Below the pieces are notes generated by a model that was given only the letters and a program-made list of their open reading frames with translations, was not told where the DNA came from and searched no databases. Below are positions 50,401 to 64,000 of a stretch of DNA of 64,000 bases, piece after piece; within the stretch, counting starts at the first letter, position 1; every line of letters starts with the position of its first letter. Both the position numbers and the translations under genes were made by a program. The stretch is from Anaspis maculata (taxonomy: Eukaryota > Arthropoda > Insecta > Coleoptera > Scraptiidae), in NCBI GenBank assembly GCA_949128115.1, contig OX421966.1:37341042-37405041 (forward strand). Reading direction: 5' to 3'.

Positions 50401-52907
50401 AACTTGGCGTTTTCAACTTATCGGCTGATTGTAACATTTTTAATTTTTTTTCAAGTTTTGTAGAGCAAAACAAAAGAATATATCATTACGGACAAAAAAA
50501 AGTGGGACAGAGCCTGACAGGGAGTGTACCAAATTTGGCCTTGTGTCACACTGACACCAGGAGAAATCAGTACACTCCGTGTCAGTCTCTGTCCTACTTT
50601 TTTTTTTGCCCGTTATAGTATTTAGACGAATATTCATTATTTGGTTTGTATATTTAAGTGACACAATGAAATGGCAAATTTAAAGTACGCTGTACAGGCC
50701 AATTCTAGACACCCTGTATAGACAAACGACCACGAAAACGAAAACAGCATAATGCTACCCACGATGGGCGAAAAACAAACGAGCGACTAAGGTCCCTTTA
50801 CGCGAAGGATCTGGTAGAGAGGGGCGAGAAAGATTATATCATTTACAATAGGTATTTGCAACGGAACTCAATAGCAATAAATAAAAAAATGTGATTTCCA
50901 GGCCCAAGCAGTGCCTTGCGCCTTGCTCGGCCGAGACGTCCTCGGCATCGCACAAACCGGCAGCGGCAAGACGGCCGCCTTCTTGTGGCCGCTCCTCAAG
51001 CACGTCTCTGCCCAGCCGCCCGCGGCCGAGGGCGAAGGCCCCGTCGCCCTGATCCTGGCTCCCACCCGCGAACTTGCCATCCAGATCTACAACGAAGCCA
51101 AGAAGTTCGCCCGCATCTACGATCTGCGCGTGGTATGCGCCTACGGCGGCGGCTCCAAGTGGGAGCAGAGCTTGGCGCTGAAGGAGGGCGCCGACGTCGT
51201 GGTGGCCACTCCGGGCCGCATCATCGACCACGTGAAGGGCGGCGCCACCAACCTACAGCGCGTCACCTTCCTTGTGCTCGACGAGGCCGATCGCATGTTC
51301 GAGCTGGGCTTCGAGCCGCAGGTCAGGTCGGTGTGCAACCACGTCCGGCCCGACAGGCAGACGTTGCTGTTCAGCGCCACGTTCCGGAAGCGCATCGAGA
51401 AGCTGGCCAAGGATGCGCTGCACGATCCCGTGCGGATATCCCAGGGGATCACGGGACAGGCCAACGAGGACGTGACGCAACGGGTGCTGCTGATGATCAA
51501 CCAGCAGGCCAAGCGGGAGTGGCTGTTCCGGATGCTGGTGGAGCTGATGTCGGCCGGGTCTATTTTGGTGTTCGTCACGAAAAAATTGGACGCAGAGCAG
51601 GTACGTGCTTATTCTAGTAAATTCATTAGTTCAGCGCAGTGACTCATCGCTGATGCCAATACACACGAGTGGGAGGCCCGACCCCTGCCCGAACTGTCGT
51701 CCCGTATTATTTATTGCAGATCGTGACTCTGACATTTTGTCATAAATTGGGTAACCTGGACCCCGTTTCATAAAAACAACAAGTTTGATTCTACAGCAGC
51801 CCAAGAGGTTCTCTTTCATGGCTAGGTAAATTTCTATGAGAAGATAAGTTCACAATCGGCCAGAATATGGAAAATACGATCGACAAGTAATATCAAATGT
51901 TTTCATTTATGAGTCCACTAGTGTACATTTGACTTTCCGGTCGTTTTCTACCGGGCCGCAGTTTCTGCGGGCGAATCTGCAATAAATTATATGGGGACGG
52001 TAGTTCTGGCAGGGGTTGGGTCATGCTTATGTTCCATTCGTGTATATTGGCATCAGGGATGAGTCACTGCCCCGAATTAACGAACTCAACTATAGCTTGA
52101 ACGAATAAATTTGATGGTTTTACTATGGATTTTCAGCTGGCGAACGATCTTAAAGTCAAAGAATTCGATTGCCTTCTGCTGCATGGCGACATGGAACAAG
52201 CCGAAAGAAACAAAGTTCTGGTAGCTTTCAAGAAAAAGGAATGCGGCCTTTTGGTAAGTACATATTGACGAATCGTTAAAACTTGAAACAGGATGTAAAA
52301 TTCACGCGTCTTTTGTCAGGTTGCCACGGACGTCGCCGCCAGAGGTCTGGACATTCCGCACATCCGGACGGTCATCAACTTTGACATAGCACGTGACATC
52401 GACACCCACACCCACAGGATCGGCCGCACGGGCCGAGCCGGAACTCAGGGTACGGCGTACACGCTGATCACCGAAAAAGACAAGGAATTCGTCGGTCACA
52501 TCGTGAAAAACCTCGAGGCGGCGCATCAAGAAGTCCCGCAAGAGGTCCTCGACTTGGCCCTGCAGAGCTCGTGGTACAGGAAGCAGAGGTACAAGAAGAA
52601 GGACCAGAATCCGAACATTGGCGGAATGGGACTCGGGTTTAAGGAGAAAGTTGGTATAGGGGGACCGCCGCGCGGTTTTGTTGCCGCCAGCTCTTCTTCC
52701 TCGTCTGCGACGTCGTCCGTTTCCCAACCACAACAACAACAACTACCACCACCACCACCACCGGCCAAGGGACCGGCTACAGATCGCCTGTCAGCCATGA
52801 AGGCGGCTTTCAAATCGCAGTACCAGAATCAATTCACTGCTAGCTCAGATCCCACTGCTCCTGGGCAGCACTCGCAGGGCGGAAGAAAAAAGAGCAGGTG
52901 GCAGTGA
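44223..52907 (+). CDS. DDX42: DEAD-box ATP-dependent RNA helicase DDX42 (six coding exons)
   Basis: Exons 44223-44401, 44451-44607, 44658-45110, 50902-51600, 52137-52253 and 52320-52907 join in frame to about 730 residues. All introns are GT-AG. Helicase motifs in order: SPTPIQ Q motif (258-263), AQTGSGKT Walker A (280-287), DEAD (390-393), SAT (421-423), HRIGRTGRAG motif VI (567-576). The pre-core LEYDEDGNPIPPDKKRIIDP block and the HGDMEQAERNKV block are diagnostic of DDX42 rather than DDX46 or DDX5. DDX42 (SF3b125) is a nuclear helicase linked to the SF3b part of the U2 snRNP. The C-terminal tail is short (about 730 against 938 residues in human) and ends KKSRWQ, like the human end. Introns 1 and 2 are only about 50 nt, whereas intron 3 is 5.8 kb and full of mobile elements. 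Confidence 0.95.
44451..44607 (+). CDS. DDX42: DDX42 exon 2
   Basis: Begins with the last base of the split Glu codon, then YFEDDEEEAVPDLAYIPAPD, the conserved acidic segment. Ends AAACAG before donor GTTTGT. The following intron is 50 nt (44608-44657) with acceptor GTTGCAG. Confidence 0.92.
44658..45110 (+). CDS. DDX42: DDX42 exon 3
   Basis: 151 codons in phase 0. Contains LEYDEDGNPIPPDKK, KNFYNEHEEISSLT and the FAHFSFDEKLL isolated-aromatic region, and ends with the Q motif TPIQ directly at the donor GTAATT (45111). Confidence 0.95.
45243..46061. mobile_element. Inverted-repeat element with ~50-bp TIRs
   Basis: The left end AGTGCGATTTATAACTCG continues as a match of about 50 bases mirrored at 46012-46061, ending CGAGTTATAAATCGCACT. 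The arms contain repeated ATTTTAATCGCAATTTTA steps. It holds a younger element at 45504-45688. Target duplication not clear. Confidence 0.7.
45504..45688. mobile_element. PIF/Harbinger-like MITE with TTA target duplication
   Basis: The ends AGGTGCGTTCAGTCAGCT and AGCTGACTGAACGCACCT are perfect inverted copies, flanked by TTA at 45501-45503 and TTA at 45689-45691. The TWA 3-bp duplication is characteristic of PIF/Harbinger. The arms extend inward through TTATTTAGCCGC and its mirror. Non-coding, 185 bp. Confidence 0.75.
46062..47777. other. AT-rich intronic stretch
   Basis: 46080-46200 is a fragment of the dispersed repeat (TTTGTGATACATCAAATTGA). The rest is AT-rich with many TTAATTA and GATTAATCA steps. 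The frames at 47250-47510 and 47521-47751 show no recognisable domain. Confidence 0.45.
47778..48820. mobile_element. 1.04-kb foldback element, TACAGGGTG ends
   Basis: Left TACAGGGTGTTTCAAATTTA, right mirrored AAATCTGAAACACCCTGTA. The arms mirror one another over most of the length (for example GGCGTTCAAAGTTGAACTTT near the left, inverse near the right) with a short centre near 48300. Non-coding. Confidence 0.8.
48888..49203. repeat. Direct copy of the right half of the 23786-24352 element
   Basis: It shares ACTTGCCAAATGTATTTTCA, CTACTAACGACATGTGA, CAACTTCACCTCTTCATAA and ACACGGGAGGAAAT with 24043-24340. It ends in a diverged CCACTCTGTATA terminus that abuts the next element. Confidence 0.75.
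49204..49950. mobile_element. Foldback element with TACAGGTGTCCC ends
   Basis: Left TACAGGTGTCCCGAAAA, right mirrored TTTTCGGGACACCTGTA. The arms share GACAACGTTCTAGGGCAGCT and its mirror, and the GGGAGCTACA/TGTAGCTCCC blocks. 747 bp, non-coding. Confidence 0.75.
50486..50617. mobile_element. Small palindromic element
   Basis: Starts near TACGGACAAAAAAAAGT and ends in the mirrored AAAAAAAATGCCCG-type sequence, with GGGACAGAGCCTGACA and TGTCAGTCTCTGTCC as inner arms. Confidence 0.55.
50902..51600 (+). CDS. DDX42: DDX42 exon 4 (RecA domain 1 and start of domain 2)
   Basis: The acceptor TGATTTCCAG ends at 50901. 233 codons in phase 0 with Walker A, PTRELA, TPGR, DEAD and SAT motifs, to the donor GTACGT at 51601. 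Very GC-rich compared with the intron DNA on either side. Confidence 0.96.
52137..52253 (+). CDS. DDX42: DDX42 exon 5
   Basis: 39 codons with LLLHGDMEQAERNKVL, the motif IVa region. Acceptor GATTTTCAG ends at 52136, donor GTAAGT starts at 52254. The 66-nt intron 5 follows. Confidence 0.95.
52320..52907 (+). CDS. DDX42: DDX42 exon 6 (motifs V and VI, C-terminal tail)
   Basis: 195 codons plus TGA. Opens with VATDVAARGLDIP (motif V), then the RIGRTGRAG motif VI, then a low-complexity tail with Ser, Gln and Pro runs (QQQQLPPPPPP) and the conserved DRLSAMKAAFKSQYQ block. Ends KKSRWQ. Confidence 0.95.
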   Translation, partial: VATDVAARGLDIPHIRTVINFDIARDIDTHTHRIGRTGRAGTQGTAYTLITEKDKEFVGHIVKNLEAAHQEVPQEVLDLALQSSWYRKQRYKKKDQNPNIGGMGLGFKEKVGIGGPPRGFVAASSSSSSATSSVSQPQQQQLPPPPPPAKGPATDRLSAMKAAFKSQYQNQFTASSDPTAPGQHSQGGRKKSRWQ

Positions 52908-57039: not shown

Positions 57040-57057
57040 TGGCGCAGTCGGTAGGAT
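57040..57057 (+). other. Primer binding site, tRNA-Ser type
   Basis: TGGCGCAGTCGGTAGGAT is complementary to the 3' end of insect tRNA-Ser including CCA, as used by the 17.6/297 group of errantiviruses (from memory of the tRNA sequence). Confidence 0.8.
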
Positions 57058-57345
57058 ACTAGGCCCATTTGGCACAAATAATTTTTGAAAATTTTATACG
57101 TAAAAAAGTGTTAAGTGGTGTGCTCCAGCACTTCAGCCTAGCAGCCTACATCTGTAATCAAACCAAGGAAGCTCCAGCGGAACCTGTCCTGAAGTTCTCC
57201 GACGGCAACGATTTCCATCAAGTAGTAAGTCTACTTATTTTTATAATCATCATTGTTTGTTTCGGGGTATTCCCCTTTCCATTTTATATCCTTTTTATCT
57301 TGTTTAGTGTATTGATATTATATTATTTACCTGTGATAATTCGAA
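57058..57345 (+). other. Leader with candidate env splice donor
   Basis: Non-coding leader between primer site and gag. A strong donor GTAAGT lies at 57225-57230. It could be joined to the acceptor TTGTTACAG ending at 63414 to make a subgenomic env messenger, as in gypsy-type errantiviruses. The open frame at 57069-57353 overlaps gag and is probably chance. Confidence 0.5.
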
Positions 57346-58311
57346 ATGGCTGAAGGTGATAACGAAATTCAACTCTCTTTGAGAGATCTTAAAGATTTAA
57401 TTCCCTCATTCGATGGCGAACAAGCCTTACTGAATGATTTTATAGAAGCATGTAATTTTGCAACGGAAAACATCGAAGAAGGACAAGAAAATGTCCTTGT
57501 TTTCCTAATTAAATCCAAACTAACTGGAAAAGCTAAAACTTTCATATCCTCGAGGAATCTAACAACCTGGGAAGCAATAAGGCCCCTTTTAATAGGCCAC
57601 TTTGGCGATTGTAGGGATACCGAAGCTCTCGTCAGAGACCTCACAAATTCTTTCCAAAAAACGACTGAAACAGCGCGAAGCTTCGTAACAAAAATAGAAA
57701 ATTTATTAACAAAATTAAGGTCGAGTGTTCGACTCGACGACGAAATTGACCCATTACATAAAAACACTTTAATCGAGTCACACGAAAAGATCGGACTGAA
57801 AACTTTATTAGCCGGATTAAATGACCCCTTAGGTCAATTAATAAGAGCACAAAAACCATTATCCATTAGCGAAGCCGCCCAACTAATACTTGAGGAAGAA
57901 AATATTGCATACCTAAGATCAACGCGCAGCAGTCAAAACAATACGAAAACATTTAAAAGCTTTCCACGACAAAATTACCATAACCAACATGTTTCACCTC
58001 AAGCAGGACCGAGCAATTATGCTCATAATCCAAATCCACGACCAGACGCGAAATTCTGCAATTACTGCAAAAAACCTGGTCATTTAATAGTAAATTGCTT
58101 CAGAAGAATAAATAATTCGAGTCACAATAATGCAAATCCTCAAAATAGAAATTTTTCAGGTCAAAGTAATTTTCAAAATCGACCAAACAATAATTTCTCA
58201 AACAATCCCGCTCCTCGCGTAAATTATTTAAAAAACGAAGATGCGGAGCTGGATTCCCCGGACGTCCAGTCTCCTATAACCCAGACGCACGTGAGCGAGT
58301 CCGAAATGTAA
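57346..58311 (+). CDS. gag: Gag (capsid-nucleocapsid) of the retroelement
   Basis: 321 residues. The N-terminal two thirds (LRDLKDLIPSFDGEQALLND at the start, then helical segments) resemble Ty3/gypsy capsid. A CCHC zinc knuckle, CNYCKKPGHLIVNC, lies at residues 238-251, followed by an Asn-rich tail. Role: particle assembly and RNA packaging. The reading frame is intact. The pol frame is reached by -1 frameshifting at 58230-58236, 25 codons before the gag stop. Confidence 0.9.
   Translation: MAEGDNEIQLSLRDLKDLIPSFDGEQALLNDFIEACNFATENIEEGQENVLVFLIKSKLTGKAKTFISSRNLTTWEAIRPLLIGHFGDCRDTEALVRDLTNSFQKTTETARSFVTKIENLLTKLRSSVRLDDEIDPLHKNTLIESHEKIGLKTLLAGLNDPLGQLIRAQKPLSISEAAQLILEEENIAYLRSTRSSQNNTKTFKSFPRQNYHNQHVSPQAGPSNYAHNPNPRPDAKFCNYCKKPGHLIVNCFRRINNSSHNNANPQNRNFSGQSNFQNRPNNNFSNNPAPRVNYLKNEDAELDSPDVQSPITQTHVSESEM
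58230..58274 (+). promoter_or_regulatory. Programmed -1 frameshift signal (gag to pol)
   Basis: The heptamer A AAA AAC (58230-58236) sits in the gag frame exactly as X XXY YYZ. After an 8-nt spacer comes a hairpin: GGAG-CTGGA (58245-58253) pairs with TCCAG-T-CTCC (58265-58274) with one bulged base and an 11-nt loop. The -1 frame is then open without a stop into the protease. Heptamer, spacing and stem all match known retroviral signals. Confidence 0.85.
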
Positions 58312-58346
58312 TTTTAAATGCAAAGTCCCATGATAGCCAACACAAA

Positions 58347-59582
58347 ATGTTTTATATTCTAGACACAAAAAATAATTTTAAACTTCTTTTAGACAGTGGT
58401 GCCTCTATCAGTTTGATTCACCCAAATATTATTTCACCCGAAAGTAAAATCCAAAGCAAAGATATTCATATAACCGGGATTGAAAATATTCCCGTACTTT
58501 CCAGTCATGTTTACGAATACCAAGTCGGTAAATTCAATTCGCACACAATGCATGTTGCACCTATCGACTTTGGATTATTCGACGGAATTTTGGGTATGGA
58601 TTTTATTTTAAATTTCAATTGTGTTATCGATTTTCCTAAAAGAAAACTATTTTGTTCAATTCAAGACTATCCTGAAATTCAATTATTTTCCTATGCAAGG
58701 AACGGTGATACTTCTCTCACTACTTTGAATCATTGTGAATCCATTAATAAAAATAATACAAGAAACCCGGTACATAAACCGCGTATAATCAACGAAGAAA
58801 ATCGACAATTTCATACTCCCTCTGTGGATCTTAGAATTGCTAAAAAAGCAATAGAACCAAAGTGTTCAATCCAAGTCGATACTAATTCATTTAAAAAATC
58901 AAATACTTCCTTCGGGAACCATTCGAGCTCCGCCGTGAGTCTCTCTAATAATAATAATCCTATAAATGGATCTTCTAATAAAAATACTTCTCTCAAAGTA
59001 GAGAATCAAAGAATAAATATTTCCGAGGCAAATAATAGCCTTAGGGTCGATTCAGATAAGAATCATTTAAATACTTCCTTCGGGAATTCTTCGAGCTCCG
59101 CCGTGAGTCTCTCTAATAATAATAATAATCCTATAAATGGATCTTCTAATAAAAATACTTCTCTCAAAGTAGAGAATCAAAGAATAAATATTTCCGAGGC
59201 AAATAATAGCCTTAGGGTCGATTCAGATAAGAATCATTTAAATACTTCCTTCGGGAATTCTTCGAGCTCCGCCGTGAGTCTCTCTAATAATAATAATCCA
59301 ATAAATGGATTTTCTAATCAATTTTCAATCGAATTCATAAGAGGTGACATTTTAGATGCACCCAATAACATTCCAATTGGGCACGCAGTGTCTCAAGATT
59401 TTAAAATGGGCCAAGGCTTAGCAAGAAAAATTGCAATAAAATATCCACACAATACCGACGAGCTGCTAGCTCAGCAAAAGATAGTAGGACAAGTTGCTTA
59501 TTCCTTTTTCTCGAGCGTAAATGAAACGCGAGAAATTTTTCACCTTATCACGAAGGAACGCTTTCAAGATAAGCCCACGTAA
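58347..59582 (+). CDS. pol: Pol part 1: protease, tandem repeats and first half of a macro domain
   Basis: Given from its first ATG, although the real entry is by frameshift from gag. Aspartic protease: LLLDSGASISLIHP (Asp-Ser-Gly at residues 16-18) and GILGMDFILNFN near residues 76-90. Residues about 186-325 are Asn/Ser-rich tandem repeats. From about residue 326 a macro domain begins: IEFIRGDILDAP, then GHAVSQDFKMGQGLARK, then LITKERFQDKPT, with Lys403 at the position of the catalytic Lys of TARG1/OARD1. The frame ends in TAA at 59580-59582, within the domain. The remainder continues in the next frame. Confidence 0.85.
   Translation: MFYILDTKNNFKLLLDSGASISLIHPNIISPESKIQSKDIHITGIENIPVLSSHVYEYQVGKFNSHTMHVAPIDFGLFDGILGMDFILNFNCVIDFPKRKLFCSIQDYPEIQLFSYARNGDTSLTTLNHCESINKNNTRNPVHKPRIINEENRQFHTPSVDLRIAKKAIEPKCSIQVDTNSFKKSNTSFGNHSSSAVSLSNNNNPINGSSNKNTSLKVENQRINISEANNSLRVDSDKNHLNTSFGNSSSSAVSLSNNNNNPINGSSNKNTSLKVENQRINISEANNSLRVDSDKNHLNTSFGNSSSSAVSLSNNNNPINGFSNQFSIEFIRGDILDAPNNIPIGHAVSQDFKMGQGLARKIAIKYPHNTDELLAQQKIVGQVAYSFFSSVNETREIFHLITKERFQDKPT
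58902..59318 (+). repeat. In-frame tandem repeat (168/171-bp units) inside pol
   Basis: Unit 1 is 58902-59069, unit 2 is 59070-59240 (one extra AAT codon), and unit 3 is partial, 59241 to about 59318. Each encodes a repeat beginning NTSFGN and containing SSSAVSLSNNNNPINGSSN. Units are nearly identical, so the expansion is recent and keeps the frame. Confidence 0.9.
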
Positions 59583-59772
59583 CGTACAATTCTATCAACA
59601 CAGCATTAATGAACTTGCGGGTTATATGCGAAGAAAATCAAATCGCTGAATTAGCACTGCCAAAGCTCGGATGCGGTCTTGATAACTTGAACTGGAAGCA
59701 CGTTCTTTCTATGATAAAAGGAATTTTTAATAATAGTCGGATTAAAATTTATATCTATGAGTTCGAAGAGCC
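59322..59772 (+). other. TARG1/OARD1-like macro domain embedded in Pol (frame broken)
   Basis: The domain spans both pol frames. Seen: GDIL (adenine-binding Asp at 59346-59348), GHAVSQDFKMGQGLA, LITKE with the catalytic-type Lys (59553-59555), and LPKLGCGLDNLNW with the catalytic-type Asp (59681-59683). From memory of human TARG1 (Lys84, Asp125) the order and spacing agree, and the two halves align without gaps once the break is discounted. Members of this family bind ADP-ribose and remove it from glutamates or hydrolyse O-acetyl-ADP-ribose. Position between protease and RT is unusual. The role in the element is inferred only. Confidence 0.8.
59577..59586 (+). other. 5-bp tandem duplication breaking the macro domain frame
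   Basis: ACGTA occurs twice in a row (59577-59581 and 59582-59586). The junction creates the TAA at 59580-59582 and shifts the downstream frame. No slippery heptamer is present here, so this is more likely a mutation of this copy, or an assembly error, than programmed recoding. Confidence 0.75.
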
Positions 59773-62700
59773 AAATACTACTTTGAAGAAAATTTTTCAT
59801 ATATCGCCTAGAACGATCGAGGTAGTTCAACTACCAGTAAAAATGAATTCATTCTCAAACAATAATGCTGATTCAACCTTTATATGTCCTAAACTAGAGA
59901 TCAATGGAGTAAAGATTCCTAATTCCATCGTAAAGATAAATGATAACCAAATTATTACTACAATGTTGAACTCAAGCAATGAAACCAAGGAAGTTGAACT
60001 TCCTGAAATAATTCTTGAACCTTTCGAAACCTTTAACGTGAATAACTACAACGTCACTACTAATCACTCAAATAATATCGATCGAGAACAAAATATTTTA
60101 AACCAATTAAGGCTCGATCATCTTAATTTAGAAGAAAAAGAGAACATCGAAGACTTGTGTTTAAATTTCAAAGATATTTTTCACCTAGAAGGTGATAAAC
60201 TATCCTTTACTAATCAGATCAAACATGAAATCAATACAAACGGGGCTAAGCCATCGTTTACCAAAACATATCGGTACCCTCAAATACATAAAGAGGAAGT
60301 CAAAAGTCAACTAAATCAGATGCTTCAGCAAAATATCATTCAACCTTCGGTGAGCCCTTGGAGTAGCCCGGTCTGGGTTGTTCCGAAAAAATTAGATGCT
60401 TCTGGAAAACAGAAGTGGAGGGTCGTGATAGATTTTCGGAAACTTAATGATGTCACTGTTGGTGACAAATATCCTTTGCCAAACATAGAGAACGTTCTAG
60501 ATCAACTCGGTAAGTCTAAATATTTCACAACCCTCGACCTTGCTTCCGGTTTCCACCAAATTGAAGTTAACAAAGCAGACATCCCCAAAACCGCCTTTTC
60601 AGTTGAAAACGGCCATTTTGAGTTCTTGCGCATGCCTTTCGGGCTTCGAAACGCCCCAAGTACGTTCCAGCGTGTGATGGACAATATAATGGTCGGACTG
60701 CAAGGTGAGCTTTGCATGGTATATATGGATGATATAATAATCCACTCTGAAACATTAGAAACTCATATACAAAACGTTTCAAAAGTATTTGAACGTTTGC
60801 GGAAGTACAACTTCAAGATACAGCCCGACAAATGTGAATTCTTGAGACGAGAAGTTGCGTACTTAGGACACATTGTGACAGACGAAGGTCTCAAACCAAA
60901 TCCCGAGAAAATCAAAGCTGTCCTAAATTTTCCACAACCAAGAAGTGTAAAAGACATCCAGTCATTTTTAGGCCTTACGGGGTACTACAGACGTTTTATA
61001 AAGGACTATTCAAAGGTCACTAAACCTTTAACCAAACTCTTGAAAAAGAACAAGTCATTCGAGTTTAATGAAACATGCCAGTCGGCATTCAGTCAATTAA
61101 AACATTTACTAACTTCAACTCCTATTTTACAATATCCAAATTTTGAAAAGGAGTTTATCCTCACCACGGACGCTAGTGATTTCGCAATTGGCTCAGTGCT
61201 CTCGCAAGGCAAAATAGGAAAAGATCTTCCAATCGCATACGCATCTAGAACATTGAATCCAGCTGAAACCAGATATTCGACAATTGAAAAAGAATTATTG
61301 TCAATCGTTTGGAGTTGTAAACATTTCAGACCTTATCTTTTCGGTCGTAGTTTCAAAATTGTCACTGACCATAAGCCCCTTTTGTGGCTCTTTTCCATCA
61401 AAGACCCAGGTTCACGCCTTTCAAGATGGCGCCTGAAATTAGAAGAGTATACATATGAGATCATTCACAAAGCTGGGAAATTAAATAAAAATGCTGATGC
61501 ACTTTCGCGTATCAGAATAAATCCAATCACAGCAAATCCATCTTCATCTCCAGATGAAGAAGACGAGTCAATAATCAATCGTAACGAGACACCAGACTTA
61601 ATTGATTTTGATGCAAATCCAGACTACGAATTCGAAATCGAATATAACAGATTTATTAACGAACAACCTTCAATAAATTTTGATTTAATAAAAGAGACAA
61701 ACGACTATGTGACACTTGCTTACCACAAAAATATAATAGCATTCATTCCCAATAATGAAAATGAGGATACACCCCATATTGCAACCTATGTCGCGGATAC
61801 ATGTACTACAGAAAGAAATTTGAATCTAACTGAAACATTGACTATCAAAAACAGCTTAAAGGTCACTAATCGAAAATACTATTTCATCAAATTGCCCGTA
61901 GACAATTCATCAAGACTTTCTCAAAAAGATTTATTCAGACTTCTCTACGAGATCAAAGAAAATTTAGAACCTAAAGAATATCATTTGAACAAGGTCAATC
62001 ACCTACCATTGAAAAGAATTTTGAGTCATTTATTCAACGCTGATACTTTCAAATTCCATATTTGCCATGATATAATCAAATTGCAAAAAGACCTAACGCC
62101 TGAAGAAAAGAACGAGATAATGTCGAAATGGCATTCCTCAAAGAATAACTTACATAAAGGTATCAATGAAACATTTCGAAGAATACGTGAACAACATTTA
62201 TGGCCCAATATGAAAACAGATATAGAAGAATTTGTAAAACGGTGTCAGACTTGTAATCAATCGAAGATTAATAGGCAAAACACAGATTTTCCCCTCGTAA
62301 TTACAAAAACACCAGAACGACCATTTCAACACATAAACATGGACACACTAGACGTACATCCCCAGTTACATCTTCTGACAATTGTTGATAACTTTTCAAA
62401 ATATGCACAGGCTTATCCAATTCCTAACAAACAAGCAAGAAGCGTTACTGATAAATTATTATTGTACTTCCAACACTACCCTGTACCACAACGAATTCAT
62501 GTAGATGCCGGAAGCGAATTTATGAACCAATCGTTCAAAAATCTAATCGAATTGTACGACATTAGACTAACTGTCAGTCCCACTGATCATCCCCAATCTA
62601 ATGGGCAAGTGGAACGTTTTCACGCCACATTGATGGATTCTATTAGAAGTTTCCACATCGATTATCCTCATAAACCTGTAGTTGACGCACTACCTTTCGC

Positions 62701-63163
62701 TATAAAAACATATAACCTTAGCAAGTCAGCTTCAACCAAATTCACCCCTCAGGAAATTGTTTTTGGACATATTGATCCATCTAGAGATAATATTTTTACC
62801 AATGAAGCAGAACTTCAAGATGATTACCAGAGACTCATGAGAAATTACGCACAATATGTTAACAAAAAAGTCATTTCCAATATCGATAGTTCCAAACAAA
62901 AATCAAAGGAACGTTTTGACAAACATGTAAAAGAAAATAGACCTCAGTACAAACTTGGTCAATCAGTGTTTTTAAGAAAACCATCAAGACAATCCAAATT
63001 GTCCCCCACATATCTTGGTCCCTACAAAATAACCAGACTCTTACCTCCGAATTGCGTAGAGCTACTAACTTCCAATAATAAATATATGACTGTCAACTTT
63101 GACCGGATAAAACCGTCAAATATAGAATTAGACGAAGACCAAGACCCAAATACCTCAGACTAG
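59609..63163 (+). CDS. pol: Pol part 2: end of macro domain, reverse transcriptase, RNase H, integrase
   Basis: Listed from the first ATG after the break; the frame is open from 59573. Residues 1-55 complete the macro domain (Asp25). Residues about 70-150 are the spacer typical of errantivirus Pol. RT has SPWSSPVWVVPKK near 248 and YMDD at 372-375. RNase H begins near 515 (TDASDFAIGS, Asp521) with TDHKPLLWL and NADALS following. Integrase has the HHCC zinc site (His842, His849, Cys879, Cys882), catalytic Asp912, Asp966 and Glu1002 (35 residues between the last two), and LGPYK of the GPY/F module at 1136-1140. No chromodomain. 1184 residues without a stop, so apart from the upstream break the enzyme region looks intact. 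Confidence 0.93.
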   Translation: MNLRVICEENQIAELALPKLGCGLDNLNWKHVLSMIKGIFNNSRIKIYIYEFEEPNTTLKKIFHISPRTIEVVQLPVKMNSFSNNNADSTFICPKLEINGVKIPNSIVKINDNQIITTMLNSSNETKEVELPEIILEPFETFNVNNYNVTTNHSNNIDREQNILNQLRLDHLNLEEKENIEDLCLNFKDIFHLEGDKLSFTNQIKHEINTNGAKPSFTKTYRYPQIHKEEVKSQLNQMLQQNIIQPSVSPWSSPVWVVPKKLDASGKQKWRVVIDFRKLNDVTVGDKYPLPNIENVLDQLGKSKYFTTLDLASGFHQIEVNKADIPKTAFSVENGHFEFLRMPFGLRNAPSTFQRVMDNIMVGLQGELCMVYMDDIIIHSETLETHIQNVSKVFERLRKYNFKIQPDKCEFLRREVAYLGHIVTDEGLKPNPEKIKAVLNFPQPRSVKDIQSFLGLTGYYRRFIKDYSKVTKPLTKLLKKNKSFEFNETCQSAFSQLKHLLTSTPILQYPNFEKEFILTTDASDFAIGSVLSQGKIGKDLPIAYASRTLNPAETRYSTIEKELLSIVWSCKHFRPYLFGRSFKIVTDHKPLLWLFSIKDPGSRLSRWRLKLEEYTYEIIHKAGKLNKNADALSRIRINPITANPSSSPDEEDESIINRNETPDLIDFDANPDYEFEIEYNRFINEQPSINFDLIKETNDYVTLAYHKNIIAFIPNNENEDTPHIATYVADTCTTERNLNLTETLTIKNSLKVTNRKYYFIKLPVDNSSRLSQKDLFRLLYEIKENLEPKEYHLNKVNHLPLKRILSHLFNADTFKFHICHDIIKLQKDLTPEEKNEIMSKWHSSKNNLHKGINETFRRIREQHLWPNMKTDIEEFVKRCQTCNQSKINRQNTDFPLVITKTPERPFQHINMDTLDVHPQLHLLTIVDNFSKYAQAYPIPNKQARSVTDKLLLYFQHYPVPQRIHVDAGSEFMNQSFKNLIELYDIRLTVSPTDHPQSNGQVERFHATLMDSIRSFHIDYPHKPVVDALPFAIKTYNLSKSASTKFTPQEIVFGHIDPSRDNIFTNEAELQDDYQRLMRNYAQYVNKKVISNIDSSKQKSKERFDKHVKENRPQYKLGQSVFLRKPSRQSKLSPTYLGPYKITRLLPPNCVELLTSNNKYMTVNFDRIKPSNIELDEDQDPNTSD

Positions 63164-63421
63164 GTATTTAACAAAAAATCCCTGCTGTTTTGGGACCTTT
63201 AAGAATAAAGCAGACGTAAATCCAAATGCGTGTCGTAAAAGGCGACTAAATAGGACTTAATACAAGAATTTTTGAAAAACTCTGACGACGTTTGGCAGAC
63301 GTCAACCATTATGTTCAAAGAACACCTTTTTCCCCATAATTATGATTATATACACATAATTCTATTCCCTGTAATTGTTTTATCTAGTCATCTGTGAACA
63401 AATAATTGTTACAGATCAACC
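63164..63421 (+). other. pol-env spacer with env splice acceptor
   Basis: AT-rich, non-coding. An acceptor-like AATAATTGTTACAG ends at 63414, seven bases before the env start codon, fitting production of env from a spliced messenger. Confidence 0.5.
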
Positions 63422-64000
63422 ATGGACAAGACTCCATCTAAAATCTTTATTTTCCTATTCCTTATTAATTTTTCTTATTCCAATATCCAAATCAAAGACC
63501 TAAACAATACCATAGGACTATTTTACGAAAAAGAGAGAGAAATAAAAATAACTTCAGATATTTGGAAACTAGTAGTGTATAAAGACATTAATCACTTACA
63601 AGAAACGTACGAACATAATTTGCAAATTTTAAATACCCTAACAACTGTACTTTTGAAAGATGAACACGATGAAAATGTAAGATTTCGAACTTTTTCCCTT
63701 ACGATAAAACCCCATCCTGATATTCTAAAAGCGATTTCAAATAAAATCGATAATATGTTAACAGAAATTAAATTCGAAACAATCCGAGTAAGACGAGGAC
63801 TTGCAAACGGTGTTGGAACCGTATGGAAATTTATAACAGGAAATCTAGATGCCTCCGACGGAGAATATTTTAGCAAATGTATAGACAAATTAGAAAGAGA
63901 CGATTTAGAAATTCAAAACTTGATTAAAGACCAAATTAAAGTCACAACAAGTACCATTCGAAATTTTAACGAAACGATTAGAAAATTACAAATTGACGAA
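63422..64000 (+). CDS. env: Env glycoprotein (partial, runs off the window)
   Basis: The ATG at 63422 opens 193 codons to the window end without a stop. It starts with a hydrophobic signal peptide (KIFIFLFLINFS). A furin-type site RVRR lies at residues 122-125, followed at once by a Gly/Ala-rich, fusion-peptide-like segment beginning GLANGVGTVWKF and then a helical region. This is the arrangement of errantivirus Env and the related baculovirus F-type fusion proteins. Presence of env suggests a lineage that was or is infectious between cells. The transmembrane end and 3' LTR are beyond the window. Confidence 0.85.
   Translation, partial: MDKTPSKIFIFLFLINFSYSNIQIKDLNNTIGLFYEKEREIKITSDIWKLVVYKDINHLQETYEHNLQILNTLTTVLLKDEHDENVRFRTFSLTIKPHPDILKAISNKIDNMLTEIKFETIRVRRGLANGVGTVWKFITGNLDASDGEYFSKCIDKLERDDLEIQNLIKDQIKVTTSTIRNFNETIRKLQIDE

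What the first reader, a model, noticed from the sequence alone, without database searches (positions are those of the whole stretch)
59322..59772. A TARG1-like macro domain inside the Pol of an errantivirus-type element
Between the protease and the RT there is a domain with all main TARG1/OARD1 motifs: GDIL, GHAVSxDxxMGxGLA, LITKE with the catalytic-type Lys, and LPKLGCGLDxLxW with the catalytic-type Asp. Macro domains are well known in positive-strand RNA viruses, where they remove antiviral ADP-ribosylation. Some retroviruses carry a dUTPase at this same Pol position, so capture of an accessory enzyme here has precedent. I am not aware of a standard description of a macro domain in errantivirus Pol. 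A role in reversing host ADP-ribosylation, or handling ADP-ribose products, is an inference.
Basis: partly seen in the sequence, partly recalled or inferred. Interest (0 to 1): 0.93.

Follow-up and report, generated by a model that had tools for sequence, protein, structure and literature searches.

The report
Tag-stripping enzyme domain in retroelements
A virus-like jumping element in an unnamed, probably insect, genome carries inside its polymerase protein a domain related to the enzyme TARG1, which strips ADP-ribose tags, and other elements in the same genome carry such domains too, which may hint at a contest with a host tagging system.

Summary
ORF stretches 59325-59579 and 59573-59770 are the N and C halves of a TARG1/OARD1-type macro domain between protease and RT of an env-bearing errantivirus-type Ty3/gypsy element. 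Each half alone matches human TARG1 first in the PDB (E 1.2e-8, 1.2e-10). The frame break belongs to this copy: of 67 siblings fetched, 61 have both halves complete, all 61 in one frame. The catalytic-type Lys is kept in 64 of 64 rows and Asp in 64 of 65; pN/pS is 0.30 and 0.46.

Enzyme activity and PARP antagonism are inferred; origin is unresolved. Macro ORFs are reported in fish ERVs; nine searches gave no report in Ty3/gypsy Pol.

The parts
57340..58311 (+). gag ORF
   Evidence: Pfam Retrotrans_gag E 0.0025 and Ty3_capsid 0.012, both below cut-off
58371..58607 (+). aspartic protease
   Evidence: Pfam gag-asp_proteas E 0.00088, below cut-off, residues 60-138 of the ORF at 58194; DSGAS motif by eye
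58901..59318 (+). 171-bp tandem repeat, 2.5 units, coding the Asn/Ser-rich linker before the macro domain
   Evidence: TRF
59325..59579 (+). TARG1-type macro domain, N half (GDIL, GHAVS, LITKE with the catalytic-type Lys)
   Evidence: PDB phmmer E 1.2e-8 to TARG1; TARG1 HMM 51 bits
59573..59770 (+). TARG1-type macro domain, C half (LPKLGCGLD with the catalytic-type Asp), in another frame in this copy
   Evidence: PDB phmmer E 1.2e-10 to TARG1; TARG1 HMM 73 bits
60383..60877 (+). reverse transcriptase core
   Evidence: Pfam RVT_1 E 8.4e-40
61139..61450 (+). RNase H
   Evidence: Pfam RT_RNaseH E 2.1e-39
61616..62098 (+). second, degenerate (cryptic) macro fold in the RNase H-integrase spacer
62099..62593 (+). 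integrase zinc-binding (H2C2) and core domains
   Evidence: Pfam Integrase_H2C2 E 1.8e-15, rve 1.9e-13
63398..64000 (+). env (baculovirus F type), runs off the window
   Evidence: Pfam Baculo_F E 4.9e-11

Best explanation
The window holds one copy of a multicopy, env-bearing errantivirus-type Ty3/gypsy family whose Pol reads PRO - TARG1-type macro - RT - RNase H - degenerate macro - IN. SHOWN by computation: the first macro domain, its kept Lys/Asp pair and its constraint across copies; a predicted second macro fold; TARG1-type domains in other element families of this genome. INFERRED: the PRO/RT macro domain is an active ADP-ribosyl hydrolase that travels with Pol and removes ADP-ribose from element proteins or nucleic acid (TARG1, from general knowledge, acts on glutamate-linked and on some nucleic-acid-linked ADP-ribose), and so counters PARP-type ADP-ribosylation by the host during reverse transcription or integration. 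The RNase H/IN fold has lost the catalytic motifs and is most likely a structural or binding spacer left from an older enzyme-like version. In the window copy the first domain is broken, so this copy probably does not make it whole.
For: Sequence. Lys kept in 64 of 64 and Asp in 64 of 65 rows (window row included); both halves in one frame in 61 of 61 siblings with both complete, of 67 fetched. pN/pS: macro N 0.30 (bootstrap 0.22-0.40, 64 rows), macro C 0.46 (0.34-0.64, 65 rows), RT 0.18 (29), RNase H 0.19 (34), second macro fold 0.44 (50). A derivative class without RT and RNase H, 15 copies: 12 of 14 that reach the integrase core have the frame open from macro to it; macro N and C pN/pS 0.18 and 0.29. 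Second macro fold. Recurrence: 218 distinct places (68, 150, no overlap); RT-RNase H-macro-IN in L026-L029, L034, L037 and L105; Gag-macro-PRO-RT in L030. Graded decay of the RNase H/IN domain in public relatives.
Against: No activity was tested. Pfam Macro does not pass its cut-off. pN/pS in the macro halves is higher than in RT, and siblings were found by the C half, which may bias it. In the derivative class of 6 copies the macro halves show no synonymous and some nonsynonymous differences (pN 0.013 and 0.004), too few to judge. By profile the window's spacer cluster does not match TARG1 directly (0.7%); the link rests on the predicted fold and on an intermediate group (94.7%), and a negative control in the same call, that cluster against RNase H, also gave 88% over 48 columns. 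Constraint on the frame could serve the polyprotein as a whole. No host ADP-ribosylation acting on such elements was shown.
Confidence: 0.6

Rival explanations
1. The PRO/RT macro domain is a reader or a structural spacer: it binds ADP-ribose or nothing, and helps to place or process Pol, as the degenerate RNase H/IN macro fold presumably does.
For: The same Pol already has a predicted macro fold without catalytic motifs; constraint is weaker than in RT.
Against: The catalytic-type Lys and Asp are kept in 64 of 64 and 64 of 65 rows, window row included, which a plain spacer would not need.
Confidence: 0.25
2. The domain acts in nucleotide or NAD metabolism, or on ADP-ribosylated nucleic-acid ends made during reverse transcription, and not against a host defence.
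For: Some retroviruses carry a dUTPase in Pol (recalled); TARG1 can act on nucleic-acid-linked ADP-ribose (recalled).
Against: No direct evidence either way; derivatives without RT and RNase H keep the macro frame, though they could use RT in trans.
Confidence: 0.2
3. The macro sequence is a host OARD1 fragment caught by this single copy, or chance.
For: None found.
Against: 68 places of the same family, one frame in 61 of 61 complete siblings, E 1.2e-8 and 1.2e-10 for each half.
Confidence: 0.01
4. The frame break is a programmed frameshift that makes two proteins.
For: The gag and pro ORFs do overlap in different frames.
Against: In 61 of 61 siblings with both halves complete the two halves are in the same frame.
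Confidence: 0.02

Closest known systems
TARG1/OARD1 (C6orf130), terminal ADP-ribose glycohydrolase of animals
   Same: First PDB match of both halves with the catalytic-type Lys and Asp; best structural match of the second domain
   Different: Embedded in a retroelement polyprotein between protease and RT; activity untested; the second domain lacks the catalytic motifs
Macro domain ORFs of fish epsilon-like endogenous retroviruses (Basta et al. 2009, as cited in PMC4977317; passage seen)
   Same: Macro domain proteins coded by a reverse-transcribing element
   Different: There additional ORFs in vertebrate retroviruses; here in frame inside Pol of Ty3/gypsy elements, at three positions, plus a degenerate second copy. 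The macro type of the fish ORFs was not seen; Basta et al. was not opened
AlkB-type RNA demethylase in orchid Ty3/gypsy elements (PMC9289625; abstract and one results section read)
   Same: An enzyme that reverses a chemical mark, carried by a Ty3/gypsy lineage
   Different: Another enzyme and mark, in an additional ORF, in plants
Macro domains of alphaviruses
   Same: Viral macro domains; alphavirus nsP3 domains are among the structural matches of the second domain
   Different: The first domain's sequence is nearest TARG1; other class of virus
dUTPase in Pol of some retroviruses (recalled, no call)
   Same: Accessory enzyme at a Pol junction
   Different: Unrelated enzyme

Membership tests
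TARG1/OARD1 macro domains | Closest to TARG1 among solved macro domains by sequence | tested here: met
   Both halves: TARG1 first, E 1.2e-8 and 1.2e-10; next different proteins 0.51 and 0.023
TARG1/OARD1 macro domains | Catalytic Lys (K84) and Asp (D125) | tested here: met
   Aligned; kept in 64 of 64 and 64 of 65 rows, window row included. That these are the catalytic residues, and their numbers, is recalled
TARG1/OARD1 macro domains | ADP-ribose glycohydrolase activity | not testable with these tools
   Needs a bench assay
TARG1/OARD1 macro domains (second domain, 61616-62098) | Macro fold nearest TARG1 | tested here: met
TARG1/OARD1 macro domains (second domain, 61616-62098) | Catalytic Lys and GCGLD motif | tested here: not met
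   Neither motif in any of 37 spacers of the window's cluster
Errantivirus-type Metaviridae | gag, pol (PRO-RT-RNase H-IN) and an F-type env in that order | tested here: met
   gag and PRO matches are below Pfam cut-offs
Errantivirus-type Metaviridae | Flanking LTRs | not tested
Errantivirus-type Metaviridae | RT phylogeny within the errantivirus clade | not tested
   Only similarity: the 34 best hits are 55-66% identical over linker and RT; two of the 120 listed rows name an organism, a weevil and a butterfly

The most novel reading that the evidence does not exclude
A TARG1-type macro domain is an old, recurrent part of invertebrate Ty3/gypsy Pol. It sat (and in some families still sits) between RNase H and integrase, has decayed there into a non-catalytic macro fold in many errantivirus-type lineages, and catalytic-type versions have been kept, regained or exchanged at three Pol positions in several families, as the element side of a contest with host ADP-ribosylation.
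Probability: 0.4. Interest if true: 0.93.

Novelty: new variant of a known kind. Interest (0 to 1): 0.86.

Why it matters
If catalytic, these domains would point to ADP-ribosylation as an antiviral or anti-transposon mark in invertebrates, as macro domains of RNA viruses did in vertebrates (recalled). Catalytic-type and decayed versions side by side in one genome give a ready comparison. The predicted macro fold between RNase H and integrase would also put a name to a Pol region in which Pfam finds nothing.

Tried and rejected
Protein search with the C half inside the pol ORF: 16 candidates, none at E 1e-3; the search needs shared 5-mers. IMG/VR and phage searches with the C half gave 4 loci and 7 records, all on phage or IMG/VR contigs.

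Single-copy artefact, chance and programmed frameshift were rejected (see rivals). One or several captures: a tree of 36 rows put 11 retroelement macro domains on one side of a branch (93/91, not strong); without four long rows the 9 left were together in only 50% of bootstrap trees. AU tests: window family held with the host TARG1 rows, p 0.056; errantivirus-type rows held apart from the other clade, p 0.41. So origin is unresolved. The 16 host rows are vertebrates, a mollusc, an amphioxus and unnamed ones; no named insect.

A host TARG1 gene was not identified: one search scored the best 150 of 475 candidates, and by my count 144 of the 150 lie in open frames of 300 aa or more; the follow-up search did not complete. 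LTR dating was dropped. No call names the host species; 'insect' is inferred.

Earlier groupings of the spacers mixed kinds and were replaced. One search had a strand error, replaced. One search stopped with an error before its last class and was redone; for the class of 6 it counted 4 open, one search counts 3. In one search the integrase zinc marker was translated in a wrong frame and is not used.

Literature. None showed a macro domain in Ty3/gypsy Pol, but listings were capped (20 of 57, 20 of 61, 12 of 260) and the five reviews were not opened. Term look-ups in PMC12440569, PMC13172572, PMC8672886, PMC4299795 and PMC12992720 found no macro domain. The library lacks most subscription journals.

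Full report
WHAT IS THERE. The window is mostly host chromosome (two exon-like ORFs of a DDX42-type helicase lie at 50881-52904) and ends inside an env-bearing Ty3/gypsy provirus: gag 57340-58311, a pro ORF 58194-59582, a pol ORF 59573-63163 and an F-type env from 63398. The end of the pro ORF and the start of the pol ORF code the two halves of one macro domain. Searched apart, each half has TARG1/OARD1 as its first PDB match (E 1.2e-8 and 1.2e-10), and an HMM of 120 standalone TARG1-type proteins gives 51 and 73 bits. The alignment used to collect those proteins held two retroelement rows; the 120 themselves include none of these two, but unnamed rows cannot be excluded. The Lys and Asp that are catalytic in TARG1 (recalled) are present. 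Pfam Macro scores the C half below its cut-off and does not list the N half.

THE BREAK IS LOCAL. The window is a piece of a 758-Mb assembly, G000. A search with the C half scored 150 of 343 candidates: 68 places, the window included, at 86-100% identity, and 82 at 38-47%. I fetched 2.85 kb of each of the 67 siblings. Both halves are complete in 61 of 67, and in all 61 they share one frame, unlike the window copy. Over all rows in which a half could be read without gaps, the window row included, Lys is kept in 64 of 64 and Asp in 64 of 65; 2 of 64 N rows and 3 of 65 C rows hold a stop. So intact copies exist and the split is not a programmed feature of the family.

SELECTION. Pooled pairwise pN/pS among copies is 0.30 for the N half (64 rows), 0.46 for the C half (65), 0.18 for RT (29), 0.19 for RNase H (34) and 0.44 for the second macro fold (50). 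Siblings were found by the C half, which may bias that half. The macro domain is constrained, but less than RT.

DERIVATIVES WITHOUT RT. Of the 68 sequences, 31 (window included) have full-length spacing between the two macro domains, 15 have nearly the same shorter spacing (12 of them exactly) with no RT or RNase H match, 6 share another, 11 have other deletions, and 5 lack a marker. In the class of 15, 12 frames are open from the first to the second macro domain, and 12 of the 14 that reach the integrase core are open to it; in the full class 12 of 31, in the class of 6 three, and among the 11 others two are open to the second domain. Within the class of 15, pN/pS is 0.18 for the N half and 0.29 for the C half; in the full class 0.39 and 0.53; the class of 6 has no synonymous differences in the macro halves and pN 0.013 and 0.004, too few to judge. 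So a form that lost its RT has multiplied and mostly kept the macro frame; numbers are small.

OTHER FAMILIES. Among the 120 listed public pol proteins (of 4329 hits by linker and RT), P0069 and P0115 carry clear TARG1-type macro domains between RNase H and IN. In G000 a TARG1 query scored 150 of 475 candidates, all at E 1.3e-28 or better; none overlaps the 68 places of the window's family, so 218 distinct places is a lower bound. Representatives: RT-RNase H-macro-IN in L026, L027, L034, L037 and in L028, L029 and in L105; Gag-macro-PRO-RT in L030, whose RT is 32% identical to the window's; macro before a protease in L106 (protease by motif, RT not in the stretch). L031-L033, L035 and L036 are fragments or broken copies. 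Six families is my grouping from these representatives, not a census.

ORIGIN. Trees do not settle one or several captures, and no named insect TARG1 is in them.

WHAT IT WORKS LIKE. The kept Lys/Asp pair, the constraint and the recurrence fit an ADP-ribosyl hydrolase that comes with Pol and removes ADP-ribose from element proteins or nucleic acid, countering host PARPs; activity, target and opponent are inference. The second fold fits a non-catalytic scaffold or reader.

KNOWN OR NEW. Macro domain ORFs have been noted in fish epsilon-like ERVs (PMC4977317, passage seen), and another mark-reversing enzyme in orchid Ty3/gypsy elements (PMC9289625, abstract and one section). Nine literature searches named in Tried and rejected gave no report of a macro domain in Ty3/gypsy Pol. 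I rate it a new variant of a known kind.

Noticed in passing
58901-59318: A 171-bp tandem repeat, 2.5 units, codes an Asn/Ser-rich linker just before the macro domain; the open frame upstream of the macro domain is about 58 codons longer in L007 than in L008 and others, as if repeat number varies.
   Followed up: partly
L038-L104 (siblings of the window's element): Derivatives without RT and RNase H, in two repeated classes of 15 and 6 copies, keep both macro domains; integrase core is seen in 14 of 15 and 5 of 6.
   Followed up: partly
L030 and L106: Another Ty3/gypsy-like clade (RT of L030 32% identical to the window's) has a TARG1-type macro domain between Gag and protease.
   Followed up: partly
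P0069 residues 850-1000; L105: A third kind of RNase H/IN spacer follows the macro domain there; the model of a relative resembles macro-type folds only weakly.
   Followed up: partly
L005, H1-H7: TARG1-like genes in Fusobacterium phages and other macro-like genes in further phage records.
   Followed up: no
57040-57065: TGGCGCAGTCGGTAGGAT looks like a primer binding site for a serine tRNA, just 3' of the presumed 5' LTR (recalled pattern, not tested).
   Followed up: no
50881-52904: Two exon-like ORFs of a DDX42-type helicase on the same strand; gag of the provirus starts about 4.4 kb further on.
   Followed up: partly
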